Shown here: piece by piece, positions 1-56,115 of the stretch
Layout of the letters: the number at the start of each line of letters is the position of its first letter
Position numbering within the stretch: position 1 is the stretch's first letter
NCBI GenBank assembly: GCA_040901445.1
Contig: JBBDYQ010000020.1
Coordinates: 27,455 to 91,454 of the forward strand
DNA from: Thermoleophilaceae bacterium
GTDB lineage: Bacteria; Actinomycetota; Thermoleophilia; Solirubrobacterales; Thermoleophilaceae
DNA: 64,000 nt
Direction: 5' to 3'
Notes under the pieces: model-generated
Seen by the model: the letters and a program-made list of their open reading frames with translations, nothing else
Told to the model about the DNA's origin: nothing
The model's database searches: none
Made by a program: the position numbers and the translations under genes

Positions 1-2600
1 ACCGTCACCGTGCCGCCCAGCGCGGTCGCGTCGACCGTCGCCGCCGAGCTCGCCAGCGTCGTGTCCAGCGCGATCGTGATCGCAATCGGGCCCGCCGCGG
101 TCACCGCGGCGCCCGCCGCCCGGCCGCGAGCGTCGGAGGTCGTGTCCGCGTCGGGCGAGGCCAGCACGACGACATGGCGGACCGGAGCGGAGGTGACCAT
201 CGTGTCCGGATCCAGCACCGACCCGATCGTCGCCGTCGGCAGCAGCGCCGCCACCGTCACGTTCACCGCCAGCGCGAACGCCACCGCCGGGGCCACCGCA
301 GCCGTGCTGCCCGTGACACCGCCGACGGCCACCGCCTCGGTCACATAGGTCGGCGTCGCCGCAAACGAGACCGCGTCGCCGATGCTCGGATCGCCCGCCG
401 CCAGCACCTTCACGTCGCGGGCGGTGACGATGTCCCCGCCGATCGTCGCCGTCGTGATGTTCGTCGCGATCGTGATCGCGATCACCGCGCCAACGCCGTT
501 ACCGTCGGTATCGGCACGCGCGTCCGCCGCCGCATGGGTGTCGGCGTCGGCGAAGACCACCATGTCGCTGGCGGCCCCCGCGGTGATCGCGCTCGTCGGC
601 AGGATCGACGCCGTCGACACCACGGCCGAGATCGACAGGGCGAACGCCCCGGCGACGCCGACGCCGGCGGTGGCGCCCGCACCCGAGATCGCGATCGCCT
701 CGGGCGTGGTCTGACCGTCGCCGTCGGTGTCGGTGTCGACGTCGGAGTCGGCCCCGGTGAGATCGGTGTCGGTGTCGGGGCCGGTGGCCAGGCCGGTGCG
801 CACCGTCACGTTGCCCTGCGCCTCGATCGCGCCGCCCAGCAGCGCCGTCAGGGTGATGATCGCGAGGTCGACGGCGATCGCCGTCGCCGCGCCGCTGCTG
901 CCGGTGGCCGAGGCGTCGGCCTTCGCGCGCGCCGCGGCGTCGCCCTCGGCCAGCACCTCGAGCGGACCGTTGACCGTGACGCCGCCGTCGAGGATCGCCG
1001 AGATCGTCGTCGAGATCGCCACGTTCAGCGCGATCGCCGCCGCCGCCGGCAGGTCGAGCGGGCTGCCCAGCCCGTTCGGCGTCTCGATCTCGGGCAGGTC
1101 CGTCACCGAGAACTCCGGAATCTCCAGCCCCGCCGGCAGGATGTCGGTCGAGGGAACGTCCAGCGGCAGCGCGTCCAGCAGCTCCAGCCCCAGCGCCACG
1201 TCCGCGAGCTGATCGACCCAGCCGGTCACCTGGCTGTCGGTCGTGGTGGTGCCCGGCGTCACGCCCGAGCTGCCCGCCACCGAGTGCGCGTCGGAGCGAT
1301 CCAGCGAGCTCGCCCGCACCGTCACCGTGCCGCCCAGCGCGGTCGCGTCGACCGTCGCCGCCGAGCTCGCCAAAGTCGTGTCCAGCGCGATCGTGATCGC
1401 AATCGGGCCCGCCGCCGACACCGCCGCGCCGCCCGTGCGCCCGCGAGCGTCGGAGGTCGTGTCCGCATCGGGCGAGGCGACCACCACGACGTGCCGCACC
1501 GGCGTCGTCGTCCCGATCTCCGCCGTCGGCAGAAGCGCCGCCACCGTCACGTTCACCGCCAGCGCGAACGCCACCGCCGGCGCCACCGCGGCCGTGCTGC
1601 CCGTGACGCCGCCGATCGCGACCGCCTCGGTGCGGTAGGTCGGCGTCGCCGCAAAGCCGACCGCGTCGCCGATGCTCGGATCGCCCGCCGCCAGCACCTT
1701 CACGTCGCGGGCGCTGATCACGTCGCCGCCGATCGTCGCCGTCGTGATGTTCGTCGCGATCGTGATCGCCACGACCGCGCCGATCCCGTTGCCGTCGGTG
1801 TCCGCGCGCGCGTCCGCCGCCGCGTGGACATCGGCGTCGGCGAACACCACCACGTCGCTCGACGACGCCGCCGCGGTGATCGCTCCCGTCGGCAGGATCG
1901 ACGCCGTCGACACCACCGCCGAGACCGACAGCGCGAACGCCCCGGCGATCCCGACGAGCGAGGCGTCCCCGCCCGTGCCCGAGATGGCGCGCGCGACCGG
2001 CGTGGTCTTCCCGTCGCCGTCGGTGTCGGTGTCGGGACCGTCGAGGTCGGTGTCGGTGTCGGTGCTGCCGTTGGCGATCGCCGTGCGCACGATCACGTCG
2101 CCGCCGGCGCCGATCGCGCCGCCCAGCAGGGCGGTCAGCGTGATCAGCGCGACGTCGACGGCGATCGCGGTGGCCGCCCCCGCCGTGCCGCCAAGCGCCG
2201 ACGCGTCGGCCTTCGCGCCGGGCGCCGCGTCGCCGACCGCCTCCACCGTCAGCCCGCCCACGGCGGTGATCCCGCCGAGGGGCGCCGCCGCCAGCGTCGT
2301 CGACACGGCCAGGTTGATCGCTATCGCCGCGGCCGCGCTGAGCGGCGTGTCGGCGCCCGCCCCATTCGGGGTCGAGATCGCCGGCAGCTCCGGAATCGCC
2401 GGCGCGTCCAGGGACGCGGGCAGCGCGATGGAGCCGACCGGCAGGTCGAGGAGCGAGTCGAGGGTCGTGAGGGAGCCGAGCCACGCCGTCACCTGCGAGG
2501 TCGCGCTCGGCGCCGACTCCTCTCCCTCCAGGCCGTCGTCCGAGACGCCGCCGCTCCCCGCCGTTGCGGCGGCTTCGCTCATGTCGAGCGACTTCGCCGC
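1..2600 (-). repeat. Tandem about 1.3-kb repeat units inside the giant gene
   Basis: Positions 1-1317 and 1318-about 2600 are two copies of the same unit, about 430 codons each. Bases 1-12 match 1318-1329 and continue nearly identically. A matching block begins at 381 in one copy and 1671 in the other, so the offset changes from 1317 to 1290 through small in-frame indels. A more diverged unit lies upstream in the gene, and the younger copy continues past the window edge. The copies encode the same order of elements: paired beta-repeats, an Asp-rich DTD stretch, and a segment starting ASSLDRSD. Confidence 0.85.
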
Positions 2601-5600
2601 GATCGAGACGCTGCCGGCGTCGATGGTCGCGACGGAGGTGGCGACGGTGGTGTCGAGGGCGACGGTCAGCGCGATGGCGCCGCCGATCGCGGCTCCGGTC
2701 CCGCCGTTGGCGCTCGAGGTCGTCGCCGAGTCGGAGCTGGCCTCCACGTCGGCAGCGCCCGTGACGGTGACGGTCCCGGCGAGCAGGAGCGCGGCGGTCG
2801 TGTCGGTGGCGAGCGCGACGGCGACGGCGGGCGCGAGCGCCTCATCGCCCGAGTTGCCGGCCGTGGCGGTGGCCGCGGTCTGGTAGTCGCCGATGGCGTC
2901 GTGGGTGAACGTGCCGCCGGTGATGTCCCCGGCCGAAGTCGCGGCGGTCAGGTTGAGCGCAACGGCGGTCGCGATCGCGACGCCGGCGCCGGCGGCCGTC
3001 GAGGCGGTGGCGGTGTTGATCGGCGCGGAGGTCGCGCGGAGCACCACGTCGTCGCTCCCGGCGTCGAGCGTGGCCCCCAAGACGATCGCCTGGGCGGTGA
3101 CGACTGACAGCGTCAGGGCGAATGCTGCGGCCGCGCCGAGCCCGGCCGTCGCGGCGCCCGCCGTGGCCGAGCTCGTGAGGTTGTGCGTGTCGATGACGTC
3201 GGCGGTGTCGGCCATGCCCGCCTCGACGGTCACGCCGCCGTCCCCGAGGACGTCGGCGCCGGCGCCGACCAGGGTGAGCGTCAGCACCTCCGCGACCGTC
3301 AGGCCGACACTCAGGCCGACGCCCACCGAGGCGCCGACGCTGCTGCTGCCGGCGGCCGAGGCGGCGTTGGCGTTGGAAAGGGCCTTGATCGAGGCCGCGC
3401 CGGTCGTGTCGACCGTGACGTCCGGGCCGATCGTGGTGATCGTGTTCGCGAGGGCGATGTCGGCCGCGAGGGCAGCCGCTGCGCCCACGGCCCCGTCGCC
3501 GGGGACCGTCAGCGCCGGCAGCGGCGGGAGCAGCGGGACGGCCGGCAGCGCCGGCAGCAGCCCGAGGGCCGTCGTCTTGAGCCCGTTGACCACGCCGAGG
3601 ACCGTGGTGATGACTGTTCCCGCGCCGTCCCCGGCCGCGGCGCCGCCGCTGCCGGCGGTCGAGGTCGCGCTGCTGTTCGGGGTGGACGTGGCCGAGATGG
3701 TCGCCCCGCCCGAGCCCGCGTCGACGTCCGCCGTCACGGTCGTCGTGACCACGTCGATGGCAACTGTGAGGGCGACCGCGGCGCCGACCACGCCGGAGCC
3801 CGTTGCGGAGCTCGTGGTGTTGGAGTGGTGGCTCGTCGTGATTGCGACGGAGCCGGTCGTGTCGATCGCGCCGCCCGCGAGCGCAGTCGTGAGGTTGATG
3901 GCGAGCGCGCTTGCGATCGCTCCGCCGAGGCCGGCGCCGCCGGCCGTCGAGGTTGCGGTGGTCAGGTGGTTGCTGGTGGCCGAGAGCGTGACGTTGCCCG
4001 ACCCGGTGATCTCGGCGCCAACCAGCCCGGCCGTCGTGACGTTCACCGCAATGGCGAGCGCGAGTGCCGCGCCGGCGCCGCCGGAGGCCAGTGCGTCCGC
4101 TTTGCTGTCGGTCGACGAGGTGGCCGACACCAAAACGGATCCGTTGCCTGTGCCCACGTCCAGCGGGGGCGCGCGCGCCGCGCTCCCGCCGACCATCGCC
4201 AGGCTGTTGACCACGGTGACGTTGATTGCCAGGGCGCCGGCGACGCCGGTGTCGCCCCCAGCGAGACCCGCGGTCGCGGCCGCGTGAAGGTTGTGCACGC
4301 CGTTGCCGCTCGTCGGCGAGGTCATCCCCGCGCTGACGGTGAGGCCGTTCGAGTCGATCTCGGCGCTGTTGTCGATGATCGCCGTCACGGTGACCAGGGC
4401 GGCGTTGAGCGCGGCGGCGGACGCGACGCCCGCCACGGTGGAGCCCGTGGCGCTGCCGTCGGCGTCGGCCTTGGAGTCGGTCTCGCCCTGGGCGGTCACG
4501 GAGAGCAGCCCGCCCGCGAAGATGTCCACGAGCGGCGCCACCGTCGCGAGCGAGCTGGTGACAGTCACCGTGGCGGCGATAGCGGCCGCGGCGGTCAGGA
4601 GGGTGCCATCGGTGCCGACGGCGCTGGGCACCGAGACGCCCGCCGGCGCCAGGTCGGTGGGGAGCAGGCCCGCCAGGGTCTGGACGAGCGACACCAGGCC
4701 GCTGACCTGGCCGTTGACGTCGGTCGCGCCGCTGGGTGTCTCGTCCGCGCCCGCACCGCCCGAGTCCGCGACGCTCTCGACGTCGGAGCGCCCGCGGGAG
4801 CTGACGGTGACCGAACCCGTGGCGGCGGTGACATCGCGGCTGAGGGTCGCTTCCACCAGGTGGACCGCGATCGTGAGCGCGAGTGCGGCGCCGACGGCCG
4901 CGCCAGTGCCGCCGCCCCCGGTCGCGGTCGTGTCGACGGTCGCGTCCTGCCATGCCTCGATCACGAGGTTGCCGCCGAGGGTCAGCGTGCTGGTCGCGGG
5001 CAGGCCCACGACCGACGCGCCCGCGGTGGCCGTCGAGATCGACACCGCCGCGGCGGCGGCCGCAAGCGTGGGACTGCCGCCGCCGGCGCCGCCCTGCGCG
5101 ACCGTCTCCATCTCGTGGACGCTCTCGGCCGAGACGGTCACGTTCCCGACGTCGGCGGCCGTAGCGCCGGTGACGTTGCCGGTGGCGGGAATCAGCGCCT
5201 CGACGAGATCGATCACCACGTTGATCGCGATCGCGGCCCCCACGGCCGAGTCACTGGCCTTGAGCGCCTTTGCCTCGTTGCGTGAATCCGAGCGGGCGCG
5301 CACGCGGACATCGGTGCCGCCCGTCACCGTGACCGGGCCCAGAAGAGTCGCCGTCGTCGTGAGCGCGGCGATGTTCAGCGCGATCGAGCCGGCGACTCCG
5401 ACCCCGGTATCACCCGTGCCCGACGTCGCCTGCGCGCGGTGCACGACGCCGTCTCCGTCGGCCGTGAACGTTGCCGGGTTGAGATCGACCACCGCTTCGA
5501 TCACCAGCTCGCTCGCGGTGACCTCCGGGTTCCCGAGGACGGAGGCGGTGGTGAGCACGACCGGAACGTTGACCGCGACGCCGACGGCGGCACCCAGGAA

Positions 5601-8600
5601 AGTCCCGGCGCCGTCGTCGGTGAACTGGCTGGCGTCGGCCTCGGACACCGCTCGCGTCTTCGAGCCCGCGTGGACTGTCATCAACCCCGTCGTCACCAAT
5701 GTGTTGTCCGTCGCCAGGGGATTGCCCAAGACCAGGGTCGTGGTCGCGGACGTCAGGACCGTCAGGGCCACGGCGGCACCCACGGTCGCGCCCGTGCCGG
5801 TAAGCAGGCCGCCCACGGGGACCCCCGGCAGCGCGGCGCCCCAGTGGTTGAGCAGGTCGCTCAGCAACGGCAGCCCGATCACGCCCAGCAGCGAGCCGAC
5901 GACGCTCGTCCCCTTGTTGGCGGCGGTCGCCTGGGTCTGCACAAGACCGCCGGAGTTCGCGCGCACCGTGAGCGTGGCCGCGTCGACGGCGCTGCCCAGG
6001 AGCGTGGTGGTGGTCACCTGGATCACGACGGCCACCGCGACCGCCGCGCCGGCTCCGCCCGCGTCGGCGTCGGCCTGCGTCGTCACGTTGGTCGTGTTGT
6101 CGGAGAACACGGTGACCGAGCCGCCGGTGAGCGTGGAGCCCAGCACGACCGTCGTGGCGATGCTGACCACGACGCTCGCCGCGAGCGCGACGTCGACGCC
6201 GAGGTTGCCGCCGAGGCCTTCGGCGCGGCCCGTCGTGTTCACCACCGACTCGGAGCCGATCGACACACTGGTGCTGCCGTTGATCTCCGCGCCGAGTGCG
6301 ACGACGGTCAAGGCGATCGATGTCGCGACTGTCAGCGCCGGCGACGTCACCACGGCCGGCAGCGGCAGATCGACCGTCGACCTCGACTTGACGTTTACGG
6401 TGGCGCCGGTGAGCTCCGCGCCCACGACGATCGCCAAGCCGACGGCGAGGTCGATCGGGATCGCCGGCAGCGGAAGCGTCGTCGGCGGCAGCAGGTTGCC
6501 GACCAGGTTCTCCCCGAAGGCATTGAGGTTGATCGACCCGCTGCCGGTGTTGATGTGCGTCAGGTCCAGCGAAGCGAGGACGGGGCCCGCGACCGGGGCC
6601 ACCACGCCGAGCAGGGCGGTGAGCGCCGAGAGGGGCACCGGCAGCGCGTCGGTGAGCGAGTCGAGCGCGGACAGGCCGAGCATGCTCAGGAGATCGGCGT
6701 TGAGCAGCCCGTGGGGGTCGAGCGTCGTGTCGAGGCTCGGCAGGTCGAGCACGGCGATGATCTCGGCGTTCACCGTCAGGTTCGCGCCCGGCATGTCGAT
6801 GATGCCGACGGCGGCAACCACGTCGATGCCGCCGTTGCCGTTGATGGTCAGCGACTGCGAGGGGGCCTGGAACACGACCGTCTCCAGGGACGCGTTGGTG
6901 CCGCCCACCACGATCAGGTCGTCCAGGAGCGGGAGGGCCGGCAGGCCGGGAACGCCGGGCAGGCCGGGCAGCGGCAGGTCCGGCAGCCCCAGCAGAGTGA
7001 GGAGGTCCGCGAGCTCCGGGAGGCCGGTCAGCAGGAACACGTCGGGGAAGCCGCTCCCGTTGATCGTCACGTTGGCCACCTCCGCGAGCACCGTGATCGG
7101 CTCCAGGCCGAGATAGCTGATCAGCTTGCCGTCCAGGCTGAGCGAGCCCGAGAAGTCCCCGGTCGCGCCGTCGGGACCTGTCGCGGTCGCGATCATGCTG
7201 GTTACCGGGCCGCCGCCCAGGAGAAGGCTGTCGAGGCCGAGCGCCCCGCCGACGAGATTCAGGACGCCTCCAGCCAGGCCCTGGATCGATTCGATGAGGA
7301 AGGTGTCGATGTTGTTGTCGGCGCCCACGAGCTGCTCGATGGCCTCGAAGCTCAGGGCGCCGGGGCTGAGGGCGCCGCCGCTGACGCTCTTCAGGCTCCC
7401 TCCGCCATCGCCGAGCAGGTTCCAGATCGCCTGGATGCTCGGCCCGTTGAGCCTGTCGTTCCCGAGGCCGCCGATGAACGAGACGTCCTTGGGGAGGTTG
7501 CCGCTGAGGACGAGGCTCAGGATGTCGTTGCCCTCCCCGCCGTTGATCAGGAGGCTGGTGGCGCCCGACGTGCTGAACGGATCGAGGATCTGCGCCGCGC
7601 CGGCGAGGCCGTTGTCGAGCACCGCATCGGGCCCGTTGAAGCTCAAGCTGTGGTTGAGGGCTCCGTCGACGCCGTCCAGGACTCCGTCGAGGCTGTCGAG
7701 GAACGTGGGCGCCAGCTCGAGCACGCCGCCGTCGAGGAGCCAGGCCGTGCCGCGGCCGACGATGTCGACGAGTATCGGGTCGAACGCGGTTCCCGCGATC
7801 TCACCGAGCAGCTGGAGCTGCGCGGTGCTCTCGCCCTGGGCGGTGGGCGACATCGTCAGCGTGATCGTGACCTCCTCGCCGAGGCCGCCGAAGGTGGGTG
7901 AACCGACGACCGTCAGGTCGAAGACGTTGTCCGTGTCGCCCACCAGGAGGATGCTGGTCAGGTCGACGAGGAGGCCGCCGAGAGGGATCGTGAGCGTGAT
8001 CGTGATCGGGGCGGTGGGGATGCCCATCGTCACCGCGCCGAAGTTGAGCTCCCCGTCGAGCAGGATCGAGGATGCGATGTCGAGGATCCCGCCGAGCTCG
8101 AGCGCCTGCGGATCGTGGCCGGCGTCGTGGGCCTCGAGCTCCGCCAGCTCCTCGGCGGTCGGGACGTGCGTCTCGCCCAGCGCCAGCCTGTCGCCCATCA
8201 GGCCGTGGCCGCCGTGCCCGTAGCCGAGCACGTGCCCGATCTCGTGCAGCAGGACGGTGAGGAGGTCCATCCGCGGGGCGGTGTCGCCCGGGTGCAGGAT
8301 CGACCAGCCGTGCCCCGCCCCGAAGGTGTCGATCGTCACCGACGTCCCCGCCGTGCGGCCGAGCTCCAGCCCGGGCAGGTCGCCGACCGTGACCGTGATC
8401 GCGCTCAGGTCGGCTCCCGGAAGGACTCCCTGCCAGAGGGACATGGCCTCGGCGACGACCGGATCCAGGAGCTCGAGCGTCAATGCCGCCGGCGCGGGGG
8501 GCGCGCGCGCCGATCCGGGCTCGGACGGGTCGGGGGCGGTGCCGTCGATGGAGGTGGCCTGGAGCAGCTGGAGGCCGTCCTGGGCGGACAGGACGCCGTC

Positions 8601-10127
8601 GGGAGTGGCGGCGTCGGCCGCGCCGCCCGACCCGGGGCCGGCGGTCGCGACGGGAGCGACGGGGCTGTCGGTGTTGTCTCCCGGCTGCGGCGACGGGTCG
8701 CTCGCGTCGTCGATCGCGAGCCCGGCGTCGTCCGCGATCGTGCCCTGGGCGGCGCTCTCGATCAGGCCGATGCCGGCGTCGCCGATGAGCGGCGCATCGG
8801 CGTCGTCACCGTCGCCGGCCTGGGTGCCGGGCGTCCCGAGCGTGACCGCCGGCGCTTCGCCGGCCGTGGCGTCCACCAGGGTCGCGCCCGCGATCTCGAC
8901 CAGCTCGTCCGAGACGGGCGGGGGCGGAGGCGGCGGCGGGGGCGGCGCGATCGCCAACGGCGGCTGGGCCGGGGCGGTCGCGGGGCTGTACGTCGTGGGC
9001 GCTGCCGGCGCGATGGGGCTCGCGGGTGCGGCAGCAGGGGCGGGAGCGACGGCCGCCGGGGCGGGTGCCGGCTCGGCGGCAGGGGCGGGAGCGGGCTCGG
9101 CCGCGGGGGCGGGAGAAGGAGCGGGAGCCGCCGCGGGTGCAGGGGCGGGCGCGGCGGCGGGAACGGGAGCCTGGGCCGGAGCGGGCTCGGCAGCAGGCGC
9201 GGGCTCCGCGGCGGGGGCAGGCGCCGGATCGGCGGCGGGCGCCTGTGGAACCGGAGCGGGCTCCGCCGGGGGAGCAGGAGCGGCGGCGGGAGCAGGGGCG
9301 GCCGCGGGGCCAGAAGCCGGAGCGGGCAGGGGCGCGGAGGGCGCCGGCGCGGAGAGCGCCTCCTCGAGGATGTCCGTGGCCGCGGTGTCCGCGGGGGCGG
9401 CGGCCAGGAGCCGCTGCGGCTCGTGGCCGTGGTTGCTGGAGCCATAGGCGCCCTCCGAGCCGGCGGGGTCCTCGGCAGCGGCGGGCGCATCGGCCTCCTG
9501 GGGCGGGCCGGCCTCCTGGGGCGGGCCGGCCCCCTGGGGCGCGGCGGCCTCCTCGGGCGCTCCCCCGGCCTGCGGAATCTCGAGCTCCAGCGGCGCGAAC
9601 CCGACCGGACCGGGGAGGGGGACGCCGGGGCCCCCGAGGAGCGACGGCGGCAGGGTGCCGATGTCGTCCTCGACCACCGGCACCCCCTCGAAGGCGTCGT
9701 CCTCGACCTCTGGATCCTGGGGCAGGGTCTCGGTGGCGTAGCGGTTCTCGACGATCTCCGGGACCTCGATGACGGCGGGGCCCTGACCGGGCTGCGGGCT
9801 GGTGACCCCGGGGCCGGACCCGCCCTCGGCGCCGCCGGCCGGCGCACCGCCATTCGGGGCGACGGCCTCTGCCGGAGCCTCGCCGGCCCCCGGCGCGCCG
9901 GCCCCGCCGGAGCCGGGCTCTGAGGGCGCCTCGGCGTCGCCCGTGCCTCCATCGCTCTCTTCGCCCGCCGGCTCGAACAGCGGCAGGTCGAGATCCGGGA
10001 GCTCCAGGGGCGTCAGGCCGTCGTCACCGGTCGCGGCCACCGCCGGCGCGAAGGGAAGCGCGTACGTCGCCAGCAGCGAGAGCGAGAGCGCGATCGCCAG
10101 CGTCCTGGCCGTCCGGCCGCCCCGCAT
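1..10127 (-). CDS. Giant secreted repeat protein with metzincin-type zinc motif (3' end outside window)
   Basis: An open minus-strand frame runs without a stop from the ATG at 10127 to the window edge, giving at least 3375 residues. Residues 1-32 are a signal peptide (MRGGRTARTLAIALSLSLLA, ending AVAA). A Pro/Ala/Glu-rich stalk follows (about residues 250-400, with a run of prolines). At residues 628-638 is HEIGHVLGYGH, which fits the metzincin motif HExxHxxGxxH, with a Met (LMGD, residue 644) where a Met-turn could lie. From about residue 1200 onward the protein is Ala/Val/Thr/Gly-rich and cycles through short strands of the type ALTVALDTTVATSVATI, as in beta-helical adhesins. Asp-rich Ca-binding-like stretches (DTDTDLDGPDTDTDGDGK) recur near 711-785 and 2005-2070. 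Long ORFs in the other frames here are shadows of this gene. The role is inferred: a surface or matrix adhesin that may also be proteolytic. No anchor is visible because the C-terminus is missing. Confidence 0.85.
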   Translation of the reverse strand, partial: MRGGRTARTLAIALSLSLLATYALPFAPAVAATGDDGLTPLELPDLDLPLFEPAGEESDGGTGDAEAPSEPGSGGAGAPGAGEAPAEAVAPNGGAPAGGAEGGSGPGVTSPQPGQGPAVIEVPEIVENRYATETLPQDPEVEDDAFEGVPVVEDDIGTLPPSLLGGPGVPLPGPVGFAPLELEIPQAGGAPEEAAAPQGAGPPQEAGPPQEADAPAAAEDPAGSEGAYGSSNHGHEPQRLLAAAPADTAATDILEEALSAPAPSAPLPAPASGPAAAPAPAAAPAPPAEPAPVPQAPAADPAPAPAAEPAPAAEPAPAQAPVPAAAPAPAPAAAPAPSPAPAAEPAPAPAAEPAPAPAAVAPAPAAAPASPIAPAAPTTYSPATAPAQPPLAIAPPPPPPPPPPVSDELVEIAGATLVDATAGEAPAVTLGTPGTQAGDGDDADAPLIGDAGIGLIESAAQGTIADDAGLAIDDASDPSPQPGDNTDSPVAPVATAGPGSGGAADAATPDGVLSAQDGLQLLQATSIDGTAPDPSEPGSARAPPAPAALTLELLDPVVAEAMSLWQGVLPGADLSAITVTVGDLPGLELGRTAGTSVTIDTFGAGHGWSILHPGDTAPRMDLLTVLLHEIGHVLGYGHGGHGLMGDRLALGETHVPTAEELAELEAHDAGHDPQALELGGILDIASSILLDGELNFGAVTMGIPTAPITITLTIPLGGLLVDLTSILLVGDTDNVFDLTVVGSPTFGGLGEEVTITLTMSPTAQGESTAQLQLLGEIAGTAFDPILVDIVGRGTAWLLDGGVLELAPTFLDSLDGVLDGVDGALNHSLSFNGPDAVLDNGLAGAAQILDPFSTSGATSLLINGGEGNDILSLVLSGNLPKDVSFIGGLGNDRLNGPSIQAIWNLLGDGGGSLKSVSGGALSPGALSFEAIEQLVGADNNIDTFLIESIQGLAGGVLNLVGGALGLDSLLLGGGPVTSMIATATGPDGATGDFSGSLSLDGKLISYLGLEPITVLAEVANVTINGSGFPDVFLLTGLPELADLLTLLGLPDLPLPGLPGVPGLPALPLLDDLIVVGGTNASLETVVFQAPSQSLTINGNGGIDVVAAVGIIDMPGANLTVNAEIIAVLDLPSLDTTLDPHGLLNADLLSMLGLSALDSLTDALPVPLSALTALLGVVAPVAGPVLASLDLTHINTGSGSINLNAFGENLVGNLLPPTTLPLPAIPIDLAVGLAIVVGAELTGATVNVKSRSTVDLPLPAVVTSPALTVATSIALTVVALGAEINGSTSVSIGSESVVNTTGRAEGLGGNLGVDVALAASVVVSIATTVVLGSTLTGGSVTVFSDNTTNVTTQADADAGGAGAAVAVAVVIQVTTTTLLGSAVDAATLTVRANSGGLVQTQATAANKGTSVVGSLLGVIGLPLLSDLLNHWGAALPGVPVGGLLTGTGATVGAAVALTVLTSATTTLVLGNPLATDNTLVTTGLMTVHAGSKTRAVSEADASQFTDDGAGTFLGAAVGVAVNVPVVLTTASVLGNPEVTASELVIEAVVDLNPATFTADGDGVVHRAQATSGTGDTGVGVAGSIALNIAALTTTATLLGPVTVTGGTDVRVRARSDSRNEAKALKASDSAVGAAIAINVVIDLVEALIPATGNVTGATAADVGNVTVSAESVHEMETVAQGGAGGGSPTLAAAAAAVSISTATAGASVVGLPATSTLTLGGNLVIEAWQDATVDTTATGGGGTGAAVGAALALTIAVHLVEATLSRDVTAATGSVTVSSRGRSDVESVADSGGAGADETPSGATDVNGQVSGLVSLVQTLAGLLPTDLAPAGVSVPSAVGTDGTLLTAAAAIAATVTVTSSLATVAPLVDIFAGGLLSVTAQGETDSKADADGSATGSTVAGVASAAALNAALVTVTAIIDNSAEIDSNGLTVSAGMTSPTSGNGVHNLHAAATAGLAGGDTGVAGALAINVTVVNSLAMVGGSAARAPPLDVGTGNGSVLVSATSSTDSKADALASGGAGAALALAIAVNVTTAGLVGAEITGSGNVTLSATSNHLTTATSTAGGAGLGGAIASALAINLTTALAGGAIDTTGSVAITTSHHSNTTSSATGSGVVGAAVALTVAIDVVTTTVTADVDAGSGGATISATSTPNSSATSTAGSGGAAAGDGAGTVITTVLGVVNGLKTTALGLLPALPAVPLLPPLPALTVPGDGAVGAAAALAADIALANTITTIGPDVTVDTTGAASIKALSNANAASAAGSSSVGASVGVGLSVGLTVAEVLTLTLVGAGADVLGDGGVTVEAGMADTADVIDTHNLTSSATAGAATAGLGAAAAFALTLSVVTAQAIVLGATLDAGSDDVVLRATSAPINTATASTAAGAGVAIATAVALNLTAATSAGDITGGTFTHDAIGDYQTAATATAGNSGDEALAPAVAVALATDTTAALLLAGTVTVTGAADVEASSDSATTSSANGGTGAAIGGAIALTVALDTTVATSVATIDAGSVSIAAKSLDMSEAAATAGSGGVSDDGLEGEESAPSATSQVTAWLGSLTTLDSLLDLPVGSIALPASLDAPAIPELPAISTPNGAGADTPLSAAAAIAINLAVSTTLAAAPLGGITAVGGLTVEAVGDAAPGAKADASALGGTAGAATAIAVDVALITLTALLGGAIGAGGDVIVRTAIANGSTDTDTDLDGPDTDTDGDGKTTPVARAISGTGGDASLVGIAGAFALSVSAVVSTASILPTGAITAAASSSDVVVFADADVHAAADARADTDGNGIGAVVAITIATNITTATIGGDVISARDVKVLAAGDPSIGDAVGFAATPTYRTEAVAIGGVTGSTAAVAPAVAFALAVNVTVAALLPTAEIGTTTPVRHVVVVASPDADTTSDARGRTGGAAVSAAGPIAITIALDTTLASSAATVDATALGGTVTVRASSLDRSDAHSVAGSSGVTPGTTTTDSQVTGWVDQLADVALGLELLDALPLDVPSTDILPAGLEIPEFSVTDLPEIETPNGLGSPLDLPAAAAIALNVAISTTISAILDGGVTVNGPLEVLAEGDAAARAKADASATGSSGAATAIAVDLAIITLTALLGGAIEAQGNVTVRTGLATGPDTDTDLTGADSDVDTDTDGDGQTTPEAIAISGAGATAGVGVAGAFALSISAVVSTASILPTSAITAGAASDMVVFADADTHAAADARADTDGNGVGAVIAITIATNITTATIGGDIVTARDVKVLAAGDPSIGDAVSFAATPTYVTEAVAVGGVTGSTAAVAPAVAFALAVNVTVAALLPTATIGSVLDPDTMVTSAPVRHVVVLASPDADTTSDARGRAAGAAVTAAGPIAITIALDTTLASSAATVDATALGGTVT

Positions 10128-10266
10128 GCGGGTGAGGCTGGGAGCGGCCGCGCGGCGCTTTCCGCCGCGTCGATCACGGCGAGATGCCCGCGTGAGCAGA
10201 TTTGTAGAACGGCTTATGGCCACGGTGCGAGCCCAAGCGCGCACTGCGCCTGGGAGTCCAAGTCCT

Positions 10267-10280
10267 GGGCCGAAGGTCCC
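10267..10280. promoter_or_regulatory. Possible DosR/NarL-like palindrome upstream of the giant gene
   Basis: The 269-bp gap between the giant gene and vapC contains GGGCCGAAGGTCCC. On the other strand it reads GGGACCTTCGGCCC, which resembles the dormancy-type GGGACyww-rGyCCC box of LuxR-family response regulators. It lies about 140 bp upstream of the giant gene's start. The rest of the gap shows no gene or clear promoter. This is a resemblance only; such GC-rich palindromes can arise by chance. Confidence 0.25.
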
Positions 10281-10396
10281 CTGCCGGCCGACCGTCCATG
10301 GTCAGTCCCCTGCCGCCAGCCCCCGCCGCGACAGTACGCCTGCCAACCGCCGCGTGTCAACCCGAAAGGTCGGAAGAACGTACTAAACGTCCTCGA

Positions 10397-10792
10397 TCAG
10401 ATGGCGAGGCCGGGCCGCGCCACGCCCGCCACGTCGGTGCTCACCAGCGTCCAGCCACGGCGGCGCGCGCAGGCGGCATGCGCCGCTTCGTAGAGCGAAA
10501 TCTGGTGCCGGGCGCCGATGGCTGCGGCCTCCGCGAGCAGGTCCCCGTCGACGCGCTCCAGCGTCCCGGGGCAGGCCGCGTGCACGAGCTCGACGAGTCG
10601 CTGCGCATCGCCCGGCGAGCGCCAGCGCGCGGTGGCGACGTCGGCTACCTCGTACAGCGTCAGGTCCAGCGCCGCGAGCGCGGCGCCGCGCTCCACGCTT
10701 CCCTCGATGAGCTGCGCGGCGTCGCGGTGGTAGGCGTCGTCCGGATCGAGCGCAGCCAGCCAGACGCTGGCATCGAGCAGGAGCGCGCTCAC
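10397..10792 (-). CDS. vapC: PIN-domain ribonuclease toxin, VapC-like
   Basis: This 131-residue PIN-domain protein has the usual VapC length. The acidic metal-site residues can be placed: Asp7 (LLLDASVWL), Glu48 (TLYEVAD), Glu102 (SLYEAAHA, where most VapCs have Asp) and Asp120 (LVSTD). VapC toxins cleave RNA and are held inactive by a cognate antitoxin. The GTG start at 10792 overlaps the stop of the upstream antitoxin gene (GTGA), so translation is probably coupled. The Asp-to-Glu change could lower activity but keeps the charge. Confidence 0.85.
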   Translation of the reverse strand: MSALLLDASVWLAALDPDDAYHRDAAQLIEGSVERGAALAALDLTLYEVADVATARWRSPGDAQRLVELVHAACPGTLERVDGDLLAEAAAIGARHQISLYEAAHAACARRRGWTLVSTDVAGVARPGLAI

Positions 10793-11016
10793 GGCGCGCG
10801 CCGCTGCTCGCGGACATGCGCCGCGTTGGCTCCGCCATGGGGAGCCGCTGCGCCCAGCAGCTCACGAATCGTGCCGAGCCGCTCGACGGCATCGGCGGCG
10901 AGCTCCCGCTCCGCAAGCTCGCGCAGGAGCCCGCTTCGCGTGGTGCCGCGCCGGCCCGCGTAGGCGTCGAGGCGGGCGAGGAATGCGTCGGGCAGGCTGA
11001 TCATGACCTTCGCCAC
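10789..11016 (-). CDS. vapB: Ribbon-helix-helix antitoxin, VapB-like
   Basis: A small protein (75 residues from GTG 11016, or 71 from ATG 11004) begins KVMISLPDAFLARLDAYAGR, the strand-helix pattern of CopG/ribbon-helix-helix DNA-binding antitoxins. The basic C-terminal part (NAAHVREQRRAP) would wrap the toxin. It is the first gene of the pair with vapC and overlaps it by 4 nt. A near-palindrome sits immediately upstream, consistent with autorepression. GTG 11016 lies 6 nt after a TATACT hexamer and is preferred if the transcript is leaderless. Confidence 0.8.
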   Translation of the reverse strand: MAKVMISLPDAFLARLDAYAGRRGTTRSGLLRELAERELAADAVERLGTIRELLGAAAPHGGANAAHVREQRRAP

Positions 11017-11020
11017 CCAA

Positions 11021-11034
11021 CCAGTATATACCGG
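11021..11034 (-). promoter_or_regulatory. vapBC operator overlapping the -10 element
   Basis: CCAGTATATACCGG is a 14-bp near-palindrome with one mismatched pair. Read on the minus strand it contains TATACT, a good -10 hexamer ending 6 nt before the vapB GTG. A VapBC complex bound here would block RNA polymerase. The overlap is seen; the binding is inferred. Confidence 0.5.
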
Positions 11035-11140
11035 TATTGCCAGGGGTCGGCGGCCGGTTTGCCCCTCCCACCACCCGTTTCTCCTCCACTTCACCGAAAG
11101 CGGTTCCGAAAGCCGGCGTCCGGTGTTACGGTGGTGCGCG

Positions 11141-12514
11141 GTGGGGGACTCTGGCCGCATCTCGCGCATTCTCTGCGGTGTCACGCTGCTGCTCGTGTTT
11201 CCGGGCAGCGCGACCGCTGCCGGCATCGATCCCGCGGACCAGTGGCTGCCCAGCTCTGAGGGTGCCACCTGGACCTACAGCTGGTCCGACAGCGCGTACG
11301 CGCCCCAGCCCACGCTCGAGCGCTACACACAAGCGGGCCGCGACGGGCGGGCGTTCACGCTCGCCTGGACCACGGCGGGGCTCGGCAACGGGGAGGGAAC
11401 CGTGCCGGCCGCGGGCACCATGGACTACTCGCACGTCGACAGCGGGTTGGTCAACCTCAACTGGGCAGCCACTCCGCCGCCGTCCCGGTTCCCGATCCTC
11501 TGCGCCCAGGCGAGCAACTGTCCCAACAGCCTTGCCGGCACGCATTTCATGCTGATCTGGGGCGCGCGCGAGCCCGCCGTGCCGGAACCGCTGCTGGAGG
11601 ACATGGAATGGACGTCGCTCGGCGGAGCCCGGAACGACGTCTCGAGCCAGAACCGCTATCTCGGCATGGAGAGGGTCACGGTCGCCGCCTACCCGGAGGG
11701 GGTGCGGGCGGCGAAGGTGCGGTCCGACATCACCCAGGGCGGCGCCATCGGCGATCCCTACGGGAGCGGCATCCGCACCGTGTGGTGGGTTCGCGGCGTG
11801 GGGCCGGTGAAGATCGAGTTCCGCCACACCGGCGGCGAGGTCGGCCGATCCGAGCTCATCAGCACCAACCTCACGCCGGTTCCGGCGCCGCCCGACGAGA
11901 ACTACCTGCCGCTCGGGGCCGGCGACCGGCTCACCTACCGCTGGCGCAACTCCAAGCACATGCGCCGCTGGTCCACCCAGCGGTTCACGGTGGCGCAGGT
12001 GGTCAACAGCACGGCGCGCGTGGACGTGGAGAGCGTGCGCGGACCGATCAGGGTCGCCGGCTCGTACGTCTTCGCCGTCCGCCGGGGCGGGATCACCAAT
12101 CTCGCCGTCTCCACCAGGACGCGGACCCGGGCCACGTTCCCCGCGCTCGGACCTCGTTCGGAGCGCCGCAGCCGCCGGCGGCGCCTGCTCACGCCGTTCG
12201 ACTTCATGACGTTCGGCTACAACCCGGTGCTGCCGGCCCATCCGGAGCGAGGCGATGTCTGGCGGAGCCGGAGGGGCAGCCGTGACCACAGGGTGTTCGG
12301 CGTCACGGGTCGCACGAAGATCCTCGGCACCCGCCGGGTGAGGACGCCCGCCGGCCGCTTCAGGGCCCTCGCCGTCTCCACCACGCTGCGCCAGCGCGGC
12401 TTCCGCTACGGCAGCGGGCGGCGGGTGAGCTACTTCGTGCCGGGCAAGGGCCTCGTGAAGCTGGTGTTCCGCCACCGCGACCGCAGCGTCTCCGTCGTCG
12501 AACGCGTCCGCTAG
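11141..12514 (+). CDS. Secreted two-domain beta-rich protein of unknown function
   Basis: From GTG 11141 the protein (457 residues) starts with a signal peptide (RILCGVTLLLVFPGSATAA). The open frame extends further upstream, but the signal peptide fixes this start. Two similar halves follow: each opens with a pattern like YLPLGAGDRLTYRW or WLPSSEGATWTYSW and closes with a strand such as GVGPVKIEFRH or GKGLVKLVFRH. This resembles DUF3108/TapB-like extracytoplasmic proteins, but I cannot assign a family. It is followed 7 nt later by a lipoprotein gene, so both probably act outside the membrane. Function unknown. Confidence 0.75.
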   Translation: MGDSGRISRILCGVTLLLVFPGSATAAGIDPADQWLPSSEGATWTYSWSDSAYAPQPTLERYTQAGRDGRAFTLAWTTAGLGNGEGTVPAAGTMDYSHVDSGLVNLNWAATPPPSRFPILCAQASNCPNSLAGTHFMLIWGAREPAVPEPLLEDMEWTSLGGARNDVSSQNRYLGMERVTVAAYPEGVRAAKVRSDITQGGAIGDPYGSGIRTVWWVRGVGPVKIEFRHTGGEVGRSELISTNLTPVPAPPDENYLPLGAGDRLTYRWRNSKHMRRWSTQRFTVAQVVNSTARVDVESVRGPIRVAGSYVFAVRRGGITNLAVSTRTRTRATFPALGPRSERRSRRRRLLTPFDFMTFGYNPVLPAHPERGDVWRSRRGSRDHRVFGVTGRTKILGTRRVRTPAGRFRALAVSTTLRQRGFRYGSGRRVSYFVPGKGLVKLVFRHRDRSVSVVERVR

Positions 12515-13335: not shown

Positions 13336-15501
13336 CTAGCGTCGCAGCGCGACGCGCTTGGCGAGGCGGGCGCGGTTGCCGGCGCGGTCGGCCGCGGACA
13401 GGCTGAGTGTGAGCCGCTGGCGCCGCTTGCCGCGCGCGAGCATCGAGCGCCCCCGCCGCGACAGGCGCACGACCAGCGTCGCGGAGCCCGCCCTCCGGGT
13501 TCCGCGTGACCCACGCCCCACCAGCACTCGCCTGCCTGAGCGCGACCGCGCGTACAGCCGAGCGTTGACGCGGCAGGCCCTGTCGCAGCGTATGCGCGTG
13601 CGCAGCCCGGCACGCCGCATGCGCCGGAGCCGCTGCGAGCGCGCGAAGCGCAGCCGCACGGCCGGCGGGTCGTCGTCCTCCGTCGCGGCATGGCCGGATC
13701 CGCCACCGCCGCCCGTCGTCGAGCCGCCGGGCTGCGGAGCAGGGGCCGGCGGCGCGGGTTGTGCAGCCGGTGGCGGGGGCGCCGGCGGGGGCGGCGGCGG
13801 AGGGTCGCTTCCGCCGTCCTGGCCGCTGAGCCCCGCGGCGGCCGCGAGCGCGTTGGCAACATCGAGGCGCCGTCCGGTGACGGTCGGCTGGGCCCACGAG
13901 ACGGCGTCGCCGCTCGAGAGGATCGCGCTCCGCAGCTCCACCGCCGACAGTCCGGGAGAGTGCGACAGCAGCAGCGCGGCCGCTCCGGCCACGTGCGGGG
14001 CGGCCATCGAGGTGCCGCTGAGGGAGCGGTAGGCCTCACCCCCGTGGCAGGTGACCTCGGCCCAGTCCACCGACGCGCCGTCGGCGACGATCGACCCGTC
14101 GCTGCTCAGCCGGAAGCGCAGATGGGCCTGGGCGCCGTAGAAGTCAGGGACGCCGGAATGACCCCTGAGGTCGAGCGCAACCGTGTCCCAGCCGGACGTA
14201 TCCGCGTTTCGCTCGTACAGCTTGGTCCATGGACCGCCGGTGCTCTCGGATGCCTCGACGAAGAACCGGTCGCCGCCGTTGGAGGCGACGTCGAGCCGGA
14301 GGTCGAATATGAGCTGGCAGTCCGTGCCGACGGACACCGGGCTCGCCGTGCGGACCCACGTGTCGGAGCCGTCCTGGTAGTTCCCGCCGGGCGAGTCGGC
14401 GAGCCCGAACGATCCTTCGCTTGCCGCGTCGGCGGAGGTGTCCCAGTTCCCGTCCGTCGTCCAGGCGCCGAGCCCGGACTCGAAGCGCTCGTCCAGCGGC
14501 CTCGACACGCCGGGGTAGGTGCTCTTCGTACCGAGGCCCGGCGCGGCGATGTCCACCGACGTCGCGCCCCAGTTGGAGAACGACGCGCGCGCGTCGGCGT
14601 GGTCGCTCGCGGCCACGCACAGGACGTTCGGGGAGTCCAGCTCGCAGGGATAGGCGTGGTTGCCGGCGGCGTCGACGTCGAACCCGTCGTTGCCCGCGGC
14701 CACCACGAACAGCGTGCCCGGCGCGTTCTCCACCGCGGCCCTCACCGTGCTCGAGTAGCCACCGCCCAGGCTCGCGTTCACGATCTTCACTCCCTGGCTC
14801 GCCGCGTAGGTGAACGCCTCGGCCACGTCGGCCCACGAGCCGGAGCCGGTGTGGTCGAGCACGCGCAGGGGCATCAGCCCCACCTGCTGCGCCACGCCGG
14901 TCACCCCGGTGCCGTTGTTGCCGATCGCCCCGATCGTGCCCGCGACATGGGTCCCGTGCCCGTCGAGGTCGCCGGGCAGGTCGTCGTCGTGGACGAAGTC
15001 CTTGCCGGCCACGAGGTGGGCCGAGAGATCCGGGTGGTCGGGCGCGATGCCCGTGTCCACCACGCCCACGACGACGCTGCTGTCGCCCGTGGTGACGTCC
15101 CACGCGGCGGGCGCCCCTATCGCGGGAAGGCCCCAGAGGTCGCCGAACAGCGGGTCGTCCGGCAGCTCCTGCGCGCGAGCGATGCCGTTGGGCTCGGCGT
15201 ACTCGATCGCCGGGTCGCCCCTGAAGCTCTCCACCGCCTCGGCCACCGACCGTCCCGGTTCGAGCTCGAGCAGCTGGACGCGGGGGACCGAGAGCACGTC
15301 CTCCACGCGGGCGTCGCCCCGGGCCCGGGCCCGCGAGCGGTCCCGCGCGCTCACGCCGGGCTTGAAGCGGACGACCACCTCGCCCGGCACGAACTCCTGC
15401 CCGGGAACCGGCGTGCGTGGCGCTGCGCCCGCCACGGGCGGCGCCGCGGCGACCAGCGCTGCGACCACCAGGCATGCGGAAAGGGTGCGGGCGATCCCCA
15501 C
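13336..15501 (-). CDS. Secreted subtilase (S8) with a domain inserted before the catalytic Ser
   Basis: The 721-residue preproprotease has a signal peptide (1-26), an I9-like propeptide (about 35-105, FVPGEVVVRFKPG ... YAEPN) and a subtilisin domain with Asp149 (VVDTG), His182 (DGHGTHVAG), oxyanion Asn271 (AAGNDG) and Ser498 (SGTSMAAPHVAG). About 155 residues (330-487) are inserted between the Asn and Ser blocks; they read as a beta-sandwich/MAM-like module (DERFESGLGAW, LIFDLRLD, LRFRLSSDG). After a Pro-rich linker (about 567-590) comes an Arg-rich C-terminal domain of the Ig-like kind common in this lineage's secreted proteins. It is probably an exported peptidase of broad specificity; its substrate is unknown. 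Confidence 0.9.
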   Translation of the reverse strand: MGIARTLSACLVVAALVAAAPPVAGAAPRTPVPGQEFVPGEVVVRFKPGVSARDRSRARARGDARVEDVLSVPRVQLLELEPGRSVAEAVESFRGDPAIEYAEPNGIARAQELPDDPLFGDLWGLPAIGAPAAWDVTTGDSSVVVGVVDTGIAPDHPDLSAHLVAGKDFVHDDDLPGDLDGHGTHVAGTIGAIGNNGTGVTGVAQQVGLMPLRVLDHTGSGSWADVAEAFTYAASQGVKIVNASLGGGYSSTVRAAVENAPGTLFVVAAGNDGFDVDAAGNHAYPCELDSPNVLCVAASDHADARASFSNWGATSVDIAAPGLGTKSTYPGVSRPLDERFESGLGAWTTDGNWDTSADAASEGSFGLADSPGGNYQDGSDTWVRTASPVSVGTDCQLIFDLRLDVASNGGDRFFVEASESTGGPWTKLYERNADTSGWDTVALDLRGHSGVPDFYGAQAHLRFRLSSDGSIVADGASVDWAEVTCHGGEAYRSLSGTSMAAPHVAGAAALLLSHSPGLSAVELRSAILSSGDAVSWAQPTVTGRRLDVANALAAAAGLSGQDGGSDPPPPPPPAPPPPAAQPAPPAPAPQPGGSTTGGGGGSGHAATEDDDPPAVRLRFARSQRLRRMRRAGLRTRIRCDRACRVNARLYARSRSGRRVLVGRGSRGTRRAGSATLVVRLSRRGRSMLARGKRRQRLTLSLSAADRAGNRARLAKRVALRR

Positions 15502-15543: not shown

Positions 15544-16734
15544 CTACACCCGCGAGTGCCGGCGGCCCAGCTCCGAGTACACGCCCGCCACCTGGCGCGC
15601 GACGTCGTACCAGTCGAAGCCGAGCACGTGCTCCATCGCCTCGTCCACCAGGCGGTCGCGCAGCGCGGCGTCGGTGAGCAGGCGCTCGGCCATCTGGCCC
15701 AGGGAGTCCGGGTCGCGGGAGACGAAGCGCAGGCCCACGTCCTCGTTGGGCACGACCTCGCGCAGGCCGCCGGTGTCGGCCACCAGGCAGGGGCAACCCG
15801 ACGCCATGGCCTCGAGCGCCACGAGGCCGAAGGGCTCGTAGATCGAGGGGACCACGGTGAGGTCGGCGATCCGGTAGAGCGAGTGCAGCACGTCGTCGCC
15901 GATCCAACCGAGGAAGGTGCCGTGCTCCATCAGTCCGAGCTCCACCGCCTGCTCGCGCAGCTCCTGCTCGTGCGTGCCCGAGCCGGCAACGATGAAGCGC
16001 ACGTTGCCCACGCGCTGGATGAGCCCGGGCAGCGCCTCCAGGGCGAGCTGGAAGCCCTTCTCGTACACCAGCCGGCCCACGAGCAGCACGAGCTTGTCGC
16101 CGGGCTCGGCGTAGCGCGAGCGGAGCATGTCGAGGTCGTCCACCGGCACGAGCTCGGACGGGTCGATGCCGTTGGGGATCACCCTGACCGCGCGCTCGTC
16201 GATCCCGTAGATGTCGGACACGTGCTCGCGCATGTAGGAGGAACACGTGATCACGTGGTCGGCGCGGTTGGCCATCCAGCGCTCGACGCCGTGGATGTGG
16301 GACTGCGGATGCTTGTCCACCCAGCCCTGGTGGCGGCCGTACTCGGTGGCGTGGATGGTGACGGCGAGCGGGCAGCGGAAGCGCTTGGCCAGATGGTCGC
16401 CCGCGCCGGCCACGAGCCAGTCGTGCCCATGCACGACGTCGAAGGAGAAGCGGTCGCCCAGCTCCACCCCGGCGGCCAGCATGTCGGCGTTCATGTGCTC
16501 CACCCAGGTGACGAACTCGCCCAGCTCGCGCGGGCGCTCGGGCTCGCGGACACGGTGGACGAAGACGCCGTAGCCGGTCTCCTCCTCGTCGGGCGACTCC
16601 TCGTGACCGCGCGTGAGGACGTGCACCTCGACTCCGTGGCGGACGAGGTTCTCGGACAGCTTGCGCACGTGCCGCGCCAGCCCACCCTCGATGAGCGGGG
16701 GGTACTCCCAGGAGAGGATCAGGACGCGGGTCAC
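15544..16734 (-). CDS. GT4 glycosyltransferase (glycogen-synthase-like)
   Basis: This GT-B fold enzyme (396 residues) opens with LILSWEYPPLIEGGLARHV, the N-terminal loop of GT4/GlgA-type transferases, and carries the donor-site block SIYEPFGLVALEAMASG with the paired Glu residues near its C-terminus. The family transfers a sugar from a nucleotide sugar with retention. GTG 16734 overlaps the stop of the GH57 gene by 4 nt. Pairing with a GH57 branching-type enzyme suggests synthesis of an alpha-glucan or a glucosylated metabolite, as in other GT4-GH57 gene pairs. The donor (ADP- or UDP-sugar) cannot be read from sequence. Confidence 0.9.
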   Translation of the reverse strand: MTRVLILSWEYPPLIEGGLARHVRKLSENLVRHGVEVHVLTRGHEESPDEEETGYGVFVHRVREPERPRELGEFVTWVEHMNADMLAAGVELGDRFSFDVVHGHDWLVAGAGDHLAKRFRCPLAVTIHATEYGRHQGWVDKHPQSHIHGVERWMANRADHVITCSSYMREHVSDIYGIDERAVRVIPNGIDPSELVPVDDLDMLRSRYAEPGDKLVLLVGRLVYEKGFQLALEALPGLIQRVGNVRFIVAGSGTHEQELREQAVELGLMEHGTFLGWIGDDVLHSLYRIADLTVVPSIYEPFGLVALEAMASGCPCLVADTGGLREVVPNEDVGLRFVSRDPDSLGQMAERLLTDAALRDRLVDEAMEHVLGFDWYDVARQVAGVYSELGRRHSRV

Positions 16735-18161: not shown

Positions 18162-18919
18162 CGCAGCACCGCCACGAAGTCGAGCGCGCGATCGAGGTCG
18201 CCGCGGCGGAGCGCGAAGTCGCGTGCCGAGATGGCCGGCGTGAAGCGGTCGTAGAAGGGCTTGGTCATCCCCAGCCGCTCGTGCACGGCATCCCAGCCGG
18301 CGCGCAGTGCCAGCTCGTGCAGCCGCAGCTTGCGGGCGTGGAAGAGGCCCAGCAGCTCCACCCGCTCGAAGACCGGCTCGCACAGCTCGCGGAACTCCTG
18401 CGCGCGGTACTCGCGCACGTGCCAGGGGTTGTCGGACTTCTCCGCGCCGGGAGGCGCCAGCGTGAGCAGGTTGGGGGTGGAGACGTACGCCGTGCCACCG
18501 GAGCGGAGCATCGAGCGGAAGTGCTCCAGGATCGCCCGGGGGTCCTCCACGTGTTCGATCGTCTGGAGGAACACCACGGCGTCGCAGCGCTCGGAGAAGC
18601 GCTCGACGAGGTCGCGCGCGAAGCTCACCCCCGGGCGCGTGTACTTGAGCCGCGCGTGCTCGTGGGCCTCGGGGTTGGCGTCCACCCCGGTCACGCGCGC
18701 GGCACGCCGCGCGAGCACGTCCGTGCCGTAACCCTCGCCGCAGGCCATGTCCACCACGTCGAGGCCGGCACAGCGATTCGCGATCCACTCGTAGACGGCG
18801 AGGTGGCGCCGGTACCAGTAGTTCTCGGCGGGCACGTCGGGCAGCGTGCGCTCGCCCGTGAGGGCCAGCGGCGGCACTCCCCGGGGCTGCTCGCGCTGCA
18901 GGTGCTCGGTGGGCTGCAC
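18158..18919 (-). CDS. SAM-dependent methyltransferase, first gene of the GH57/GT4 operon
   Basis: A class I methyltransferase of 253 residues from GTG 18919. Motif I is LDVVDMACGEGYGTD, followed by GVDANPEA (motif II) and VVFLQTIEHVEDP (motif IV region). The N-terminus TGERTLPDVPAENYWYRRH is typical of methyltransferases found near sugar-polymer genes. Translational coupling to GH57 and GT4 suggests it methylates the same product or its acceptor, as in mycobacterial methylglucose lipopolysaccharide synthesis. That is an inference from context; the substrate is unknown. Confidence 0.85.
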   Translation of the reverse strand: MQPTEHLQREQPRGVPPLALTGERTLPDVPAENYWYRRHLAVYEWIANRCAGLDVVDMACGEGYGTDVLARRAARVTGVDANPEAHEHARLKYTRPGVSFARDLVERFSERCDAVVFLQTIEHVEDPRAILEHFRSMLRSGGTAYVSTPNLLTLAPPGAEKSDNPWHVREYRAQEFRELCEPVFERVELLGLFHARKLRLHELALRAGWDAVHERLGMTKPFYDRFTPAISARDFALRRGDLDRALDFVAVLR

Positions 18920-55946: not shown

Positions 55947-55965
55947 ACGCCGGTATAGTCCGCGC

Positions 55966-56106: not shown

Positions 56107-56115
56107 GAACACGAC

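What the first reader, a model, noticed from the sequence alone, without database searches (positions are those of the whole stretch)
1..10127. Giant repeat adhesin carrying a metzincin zinc motif behind a Pro/Ala stalk
One frame encodes over 3375 residues with signal peptide, stalk, HEIGHVLGYGH (residues 628-638, HExxHxxGxxH) and a downstream Met, then a very long beta-repeat region. A metzincin protease joined to a giant filamentous-adhesin-like repeat region is an uncommon architecture and suggests a surface protein that can cut host, prey or matrix proteins or process itself.
Basis: partly seen in the sequence, partly recalled or inferred. Interest (0 to 1): 0.7.

Follow-up and report, generated by a model that had tools for sequence, protein, structure and literature searches.

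The report
Giant surface protein with matrixin protease
An actinobacterium encodes a secreted protein of about 12,000 amino acids that carries a small zinc protease of the collagenase (MMP) kind near its front end; it belongs to a widespread, barely described family of giant bacterial proteins in which this protease and one conserved calcium-binding block were found together in every sampled gene.

Summary
The minus-strand frame 3-10127 is open, starts with a Sec signal peptide and a Pro/Ala stalk, and carries HEIGHVLGYGH at residues 628-638 with Met644 behind it. An AlphaFold2 model of residues 516-687 (pLDDT 87) matches MMP catalytic domains (Z 10.3 to stromelysin-3, 9.8 to karilysin). The window shows only the first 28%: a 100-N scaffold gap lies just before it, and beyond the gap the same repeats continue to a stop at C20:1652, giving about 12,000 residues ending in an RTX calcium-binding block.

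The architecture is not a one-off. Relatives, found with an anchor that excludes the zinc motif, occur in at least seven phyla; 79 of 82 anchors keep the zinc site. In a Pseudomonadota sample every gene with the RTX block (5 of 5) carries the matrixin in the same frame, against 1 weak hit in 295 block-less genomes. The matrixin sits at either end and switched position at least six times. Diderm members carry LEPR-XLL and lie beside SecA-like, HlyD, M50-HlyD and SapC genes; this one uses a Sec signal peptide. Proteolysis and its target are inferred, not shown.

The parts
3..10127 (-). Visible part (first 3375 residues) of one giant gene; continues beyond the window and a 100-N gap to C20:1652, about 12,000 residues in all
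   Evidence: codon-position GC 0.71/0.58/0.94; single matrixin and single RTX block in the genome
10029..10127 (-). Sec-type signal peptide, residues 1-33 (MRGGRTARTLAIALSLSLLATYALPFAPAVAAT)
   Evidence: read from sequence; no signal-peptide predictor was run
9348..10028 (-). Gly/Ala/Pro/acidic linker, residues 34-260
   Evidence: composition
8913..9347 (-). Pro/Ala stalk, residues 261-405 (42% Ala, 39% Pro, no Cys)
8058..8477 (-). Matrixin-like catalytic domain, about residues 551-690
   Evidence: alignments A1, A2; AF2 model pLDDT 86.8; MMP fold matches; all 57 aligned members match Pfam Peptidase_M10
8214..8246 (-). Zinc motif HEIGHVLGYGH, residues 628-638 (ligands His628, His632, His638; general base Glu629)
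   Evidence: 79/82 relatives keep HExGHxxGxx[HD]
8196..8198 (-). Met-turn methionine, Met644
   Evidence: invariant column in A1 and A2
3..6410 (-). Ala/Thr/Gly/Val-rich beta-repeat region, residues about 1240-3375 and continuing past the window
   Evidence: self-similarity with about 430-residue super-units; LktA-type tandem-repeat match below cut-off, E 1e-4; all-beta low-confidence model
1158..2447 (-). 430-residue super-unit, copy at residues 2561-2990
   Evidence: 74% protein identity to the next copy
3..1160 (-). Next copy of the super-unit, cut by the scaffold gap

Best explanation
SHOWN: one gene encodes a giant exported-type protein with the order signal peptide, linker, Pro/Ala stalk, matrixin-like zinc peptidase domain, thousands of residues of beta repeats, then a conserved RTX calcium-binding block at the C-terminus. 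It is an actinobacterial member of a trans-phylum family in which this matrixin and this block travel together. INFERRED: the protein leaves the cell by Sec; calcium outside the cell folds the RTX block; the repeats form a long fibre or sheath on or near the cell; and the matrixin is a working zinc endopeptidase held at one end of it on a flexible stalk. Most likely it cuts proteins that touch the fibre (matrix, neighbours' surface proteins, nutrient proteins). Cutting of the giant itself is the close second.
For: Fold: top 15 Foldseek hits are all MMP or karilysin; VIA Z 10.3 to stromelysin-3, 9.9 to snapalysin, 9.8 to karilysin. Activity: relatives were found with the anchor [IVL]D[TAQ][DTN]AAGxGW, not with HExxH, yet 79/82 keep HExGHxxGxx[HD], and the invariant columns are the zinc and Met-turn residues plus D/A/G/W. 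Same gene: open frame on both sides of the gap with matching repeat copies, and one matrixin and one block in the genome. Pairing: 5/5 block genes in Pseudomonadota have the matrixin in the same frame; without the genome used as centre, 3/3 block genomes versus 1/295 (p 9e-7). In Actinomycetota the block was found only in G000 and G156, both with the matrixin. End placement: 68 of 84 domains lie at an end of the frame. Export: signal peptide.
Against: No activity, localisation or expression data. Pfam's score for this one sequence (18.5 bits) is below the curated cut-off of 24. The repeat model has low confidence (pLDDT 60) and no significant PDB match, so 'fibre' is a guess. No sorting motif or membrane anchor was seen at this protein's C-terminus. 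Three relatives have HExGN in place of the second zinc His, so the site is not needed everywhere. The gap is unsequenced here. Pairing with the block fits self-processing as well as external cutting.
Confidence: 0.5

Rival explanations
1. Self-processing: the matrixin cuts the giant itself (or sister giants) after export, to mature it, trim it or release it from the cell.
For: The matrixin stays with one specific block although its position moved between ends at least six times, as expected if the pair works in cis. One Salsipaludibacter giant has a matrixin at each end and a likely C-terminal membrane helix. Large T1SS adhesins are known to be released by proteolysis (LapA/LapG, established knowledge).
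Against: No conserved cleavage-like site was recognised around the domain. The terminal position on a long Pro/Ala stalk is also what an outward-reaching enzyme would have. Shorter copies without a giant exist (11 complete frames under 1,500 residues).
Confidence: 0.35
2. The domain is a dead or purely structural matrixin fold (ligand-binding or spacer module).
For: Three of 82 relatives carry HExGN, losing a zinc ligand, and this copy sits on a long branch.
Against: This copy keeps all three His, Glu and Met; 79/82 relatives keep the zinc motif, with the strongest conservation exactly there.
Confidence: 0.1
3. The scaffold joins two different giant genes across the 100-N gap, so the RTX block is not part of this protein.
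For: The gap lies in long repeats, where assemblies fail; Salsipaludibacter has three giant genes in tandem.
Against: Both sides are open on the same strand with copies of the same 430-residue unit (74-81% identity). The genome has one matrixin and one block, and relatives carry both in a single frame.
Confidence: 0.05

Closest known systems
Matrixins / bacterial MMP-like peptidases (Pfam PF00413 Peptidase_M10; karilysin, snapalysin, MMPs)
   Same: HExxHxxGxxH, Met-turn, MMP-type fold
   Different: Short (about 115-140 residues), with its own conserved I/V/L-D-x-x-A-A-G-x-G-W segment; no Cys in residues 1-690, so no cysteine switch; embedded in a giant repeat protein; own sequence below the Pfam cut-off
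LEPR-XLL (NCBIfam NF012209 LEPR-8K) giant proteins
   Same: Diderm members that carry the same block and matrixin have LEPR-XLL near the N-terminus
   Different: This protein has no LEPR-XLL match in its N-terminal part but a Sec signal peptide; no export genes of that kind next to it
RTX giant adhesins / RTX exoproteins
   Same: Hemolysin-type Ca-binding repeats well over cut-off in the C-terminal part (94.9 vs 23 bits)
   Different: RTX block is one conserved about 900-residue module with many non-RTX invariant motifs; no type I secretion genes seen at the locus; actinobacterial host
Filamentous haemagglutinin / two-partner secretion exoproteins
   Same: Long beta-rich repeats
   Different: No TPS secretion domain or haemagglutinin repeats in Pfam; model has no significant beta-helix match
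Giant1-5 proteins of Apilactobacillus kunkeei (PMC12863079, PMC10496945)
   Same: Giant, Ala-rich extracellular repeat proteins of a monoderm
   Different: Those are predicted as a beta-solenoid head on alpha-helical repeats; the term metalloprotease does not occur in that paper

Membership tests
Matrixin (M10, metzincin clan) | HExxHxxGxxH/D zinc motif | tested here: met
   residues 628-638; 79/82 relatives
Matrixin (M10, metzincin clan) | Met-turn after the third ligand | tested here: met
   Met644, invariant in 57
Matrixin (M10, metzincin clan) | Matrixin catalytic fold | tested here: met
   VIA Z 10.3 over 115 residues to 1hv5; Foldseek best E 7.5e-4 to MMP-1
Matrixin (M10, metzincin clan) | Pfam PF00413 above curated cut-off | tested here: inconclusive
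   own sequence 18.5 bits (cut-off 24); all 57 family members match at E <= 0.01, best 4e-12
Animal-type MMP | Cysteine-switch propeptide | tested here: not met
   no Cys in residues 1-690
Matrixin (M10, metzincin clan) | Zinc-dependent proteolysis | not testable with these tools
   needs purified protein
LEPR-XLL giant proteins | NF012209 LEPR-8K domain at the N-terminus | tested here: not met
   no match in residues 1-3375, whereas four diderm relatives match above cut-off; genome-wide search silent but its control was silent too
LEPR-XLL giant proteins | Shared conserved RTX block (alignment A3) | tested here: met
   45-57% identity over about 900 residues to 14 others
RTX proteins | Ca-binding nonapeptide repeats (PF00353) | tested here: met
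   94.9 bits, 8 stretches
RTX proteins | Type I secretion | tested here: inconclusive
   no homologs of the diderm export genes in own C20:1-41000 or the window; rest of genome not checked
Two-partner secretion / FHA | TPS (haemagglutination activity) domain | tested here: not met
   no Pfam match in residues 1-3375
Adhesin | Binding to a surface or cell | not testable with these tools
   no assay

The most novel reading that the evidence does not exclude
A trans-phylum surface system that has not been described as such: a giant RTX fibre whose obligate catalytic partner is a matrixin that can sit at either end, exported in diderms by its own line (SecA-like ATPase, M50-HlyD chimera, HlyD adaptor, SapC) recognising LEPR-XLL, and re-housed under a Sec signal peptide in Actinomycetota, so that protease plus RTX block, not the export route, is the functional core.
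Probability: 0.4. Interest if true: 0.75.

Novelty: new variant of a known kind. Interest (0 to 1): 0.52.

Why it matters
Giant bacterial genes are mostly called adhesins with no mechanism. Here one family gains a testable enzymatic core: a matrixin found with one conserved RTX block in every sampled gene, across phyla and at either end of the protein. An E-to-A mutant in a culturable member (Salsipaludibacter albus, Thioclava, Pseudooceanicola, Nostocales) would show what the giant does. The actinobacterial version also shows the same core exported by a different route.

Tried and rejected
Two genes joined by chance: rejected because the frame is open on both sides of the gap, the flanking repeat copies match, and the genome has one matrixin and one block. 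Chance motif: rejected. FHA/two-partner secretion: no domain found. First genome-contig scan with the single sequence found nothing; the alignment scan succeeded. AF2 on the repeat unit gave an all-beta but low-confidence model and Foldseek gave nothing significant. Viral library: best hits are insect-virus MMPs, which adds nothing. LEPR-8K genome search was uninformative because its control was silent. Papers: nothing found that describes matrixin plus LEPR-XLL/RTX giants; LEPR-XLL appears once each in two papers. The tree did not place this copy (unresolved).

Full report
What is there. The window is G000:C20:27455-91454. Reading further out, the window starts immediately after a 100-N gap; on the other side the same strand is open for 8,566 residues until a stop at C20:1652. 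The sequence at the gap is a 430-residue super-unit present in several copies (74% protein identity between the last two copies before the gap, 81% DNA identity across it). That explains the assembly break and puts about 127 residues in the gap if only one unit spans it. The protein is thus about 12,000 residues: Sec signal peptide 1-33, linker 34-260, Pro/Ala stalk 261-405 (81% Ala+Pro), linker, matrixin about 551-690, a 550-residue Leu/Gly-rich part, long Ala/Thr/Gly/Val repeats, a more complex middle, and a C-terminal RTX part.

The protease domain. The zinc motif HEIGHVLGYGH is the only HExxH in the frame. An alignment of 57 domains leaves D, A, G, W, H, E, G, H, G and M invariant. All 57 match Pfam Peptidase_M10 at E <= 0.01, best 4e-12, although this copy alone scores below the cut-off. 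The profile finds stromelysin-3, karilysin and other MMPs in the PDB by sequence. AlphaFold2 with the 57-row alignment gives pLDDT 86.8, above 90 over the core; the best matches are stromelysin-3 (Z 10.3), snapalysin (9.9) and karilysin (9.8), and the first 15 Foldseek hits are MMPs or karilysin. Residues 1-690 hold no cysteine, so there is no cysteine switch.

Is the active site kept? The genome-contig scan used the anchor [IVL]D[TAQ][DTN]AAGxGW, which does not include the zinc motif. Of 82 anchors in the 80 fetched loci, 79 are followed by HExGHxxGxx[HD] and three by HExGN. The zinc site is therefore under strong but not absolute constraint.

Relatives and the second half. The closest whole relatives are in Salsipaludibacter albus (G156; contig NZ_JAHOPH010000005.1): three giant frames of 13,159, 11,695 and 7,448 residues, each with an N-terminal matrixin, the last with another at its C-terminus. 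Nostocales plasmids carry genes of 31-35 kb with the domain within the first 270 residues of the frame. The own C-terminal region (residues about 9,250-11,650) aligns with giants from Pseudomonadota, Thermodesulfobacteriota, Planctomycetota and Chloroflexota; about 900 residues of it are 45-57% identical across 15 proteins, with long invariant non-RTX motifs. In most of those proteins the matrixin follows the block at the C-terminus.

Pairing. Searching with the block alone, it occurs in 2 of 396 Actinomycetota genomes (this one and G156) and in 4 of 299 genomes of the Rubrivivax phylum (five genes). The matrixin profile on the same 299 genomes hits all five of those genes, in the same open frames, and only one other genome, weakly. 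Leaving out the genome used as the centre, this is 3 of 3 against 1 of 295 (p 9e-7). No relative was found in 60 genomes of the same family and order. A tree of 84 domains needs at least six changes between N- and C-terminal placement on supported branches. The pair persists while its order changes.

Export. Four complete diderm giants checked have the NCBIfam LEPR-8K (LEPR-XLL) domain at the N-terminus. Near one of them lie a SapC gene, a truncated SecA-like ATPase, an HlyD-type adaptor and a protein that joins an M50-like part to HlyD; homologs of two or more of these lie in about a dozen of the other matrixin loci. None is found in this actinobacterium's C20:1-41000, its window or the Salsipaludibacter contig. 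Here a Sec signal peptide takes the place of LEPR-XLL. The host is Actinomycetota (same phylum as Salsipaludibacter). Its RpoB is 78-90% identical to fragments from a Solirubrobacterales MAG and about 61% to other actinobacteria, so it is probably Thermoleophilia.

How it most likely works. Shown: gene structure, domain identity, conservation of the catalytic site, pairing with the block. Inferred: Sec export, calcium-driven folding of the RTX block outside, an extended repeat fibre, and a working zinc protease held at one end. I favour outward cutting of proteins that touch the fibre, because the domain is usually terminal and here sits on a long flexible stalk; self-processing is nearly as likely. 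A dead domain is unlikely in this copy. The repeat region is predicted all-beta but with low confidence, so 'adhesin' remains a label.

Novelty. Matrixins, RTX repeats, LEPR-XLL and giant genes are each known (giant genes: PMC5352709, PMC11573180, citing Reva and Tummler 2008). In the open-access library I found no description of this combined family; LEPR-XLL occurs once each in two papers. That is absence from one library, not proof. I file it as a new variant of a known kind.

Noticed in passing
window 13339-15501 (-): Secreted subtilase (Peptidase_S8 with fervidolysin-type pro-domain) about 3 kb upstream of the giant gene.
   Followed up: partly
window 15544-18788 (-): GT4/starch-synthase-like frame followed by a GH57 branching-enzyme frame: glycogen-type gene pair.
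   Followed up: no
window 55956-56118 (+): c-di-AMP riboswitch (RF00379), 44 bits against a gathering score of 38.
   Followed up: no
G000:C20:1-1554 (-), L004: Gene just downstream of the giant gene: a secreted protein with signal peptide, about 518 residues or more, cut by the contig end.
   Followed up: no
L127 787-8683: Export-like cluster beside a LEPR-XLL giant: SecA-like, M50-HlyD chimera, HlyD and SapC; homologs near many other matrixin giants.
   Followed up: partly
L022 751-32453 (Rhodococcus antarcticus plasmid): Relative whose matrixin and RTX block lie in different frames; the annotated start is downstream of the matrixin, which is overlapped by an antisense 'hypothetical' gene: misannotation or frameshift.
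   Followed up: partly
L036 697, L079 10169, L087 10157: Natural variants with HExGN in place of the second zinc histidine.
   Followed up: no
L047, L054 (Thioclava): Two matrixin domains in tandem, about 200 residues apart, near the N-terminus of one giant frame.
   Followed up: no
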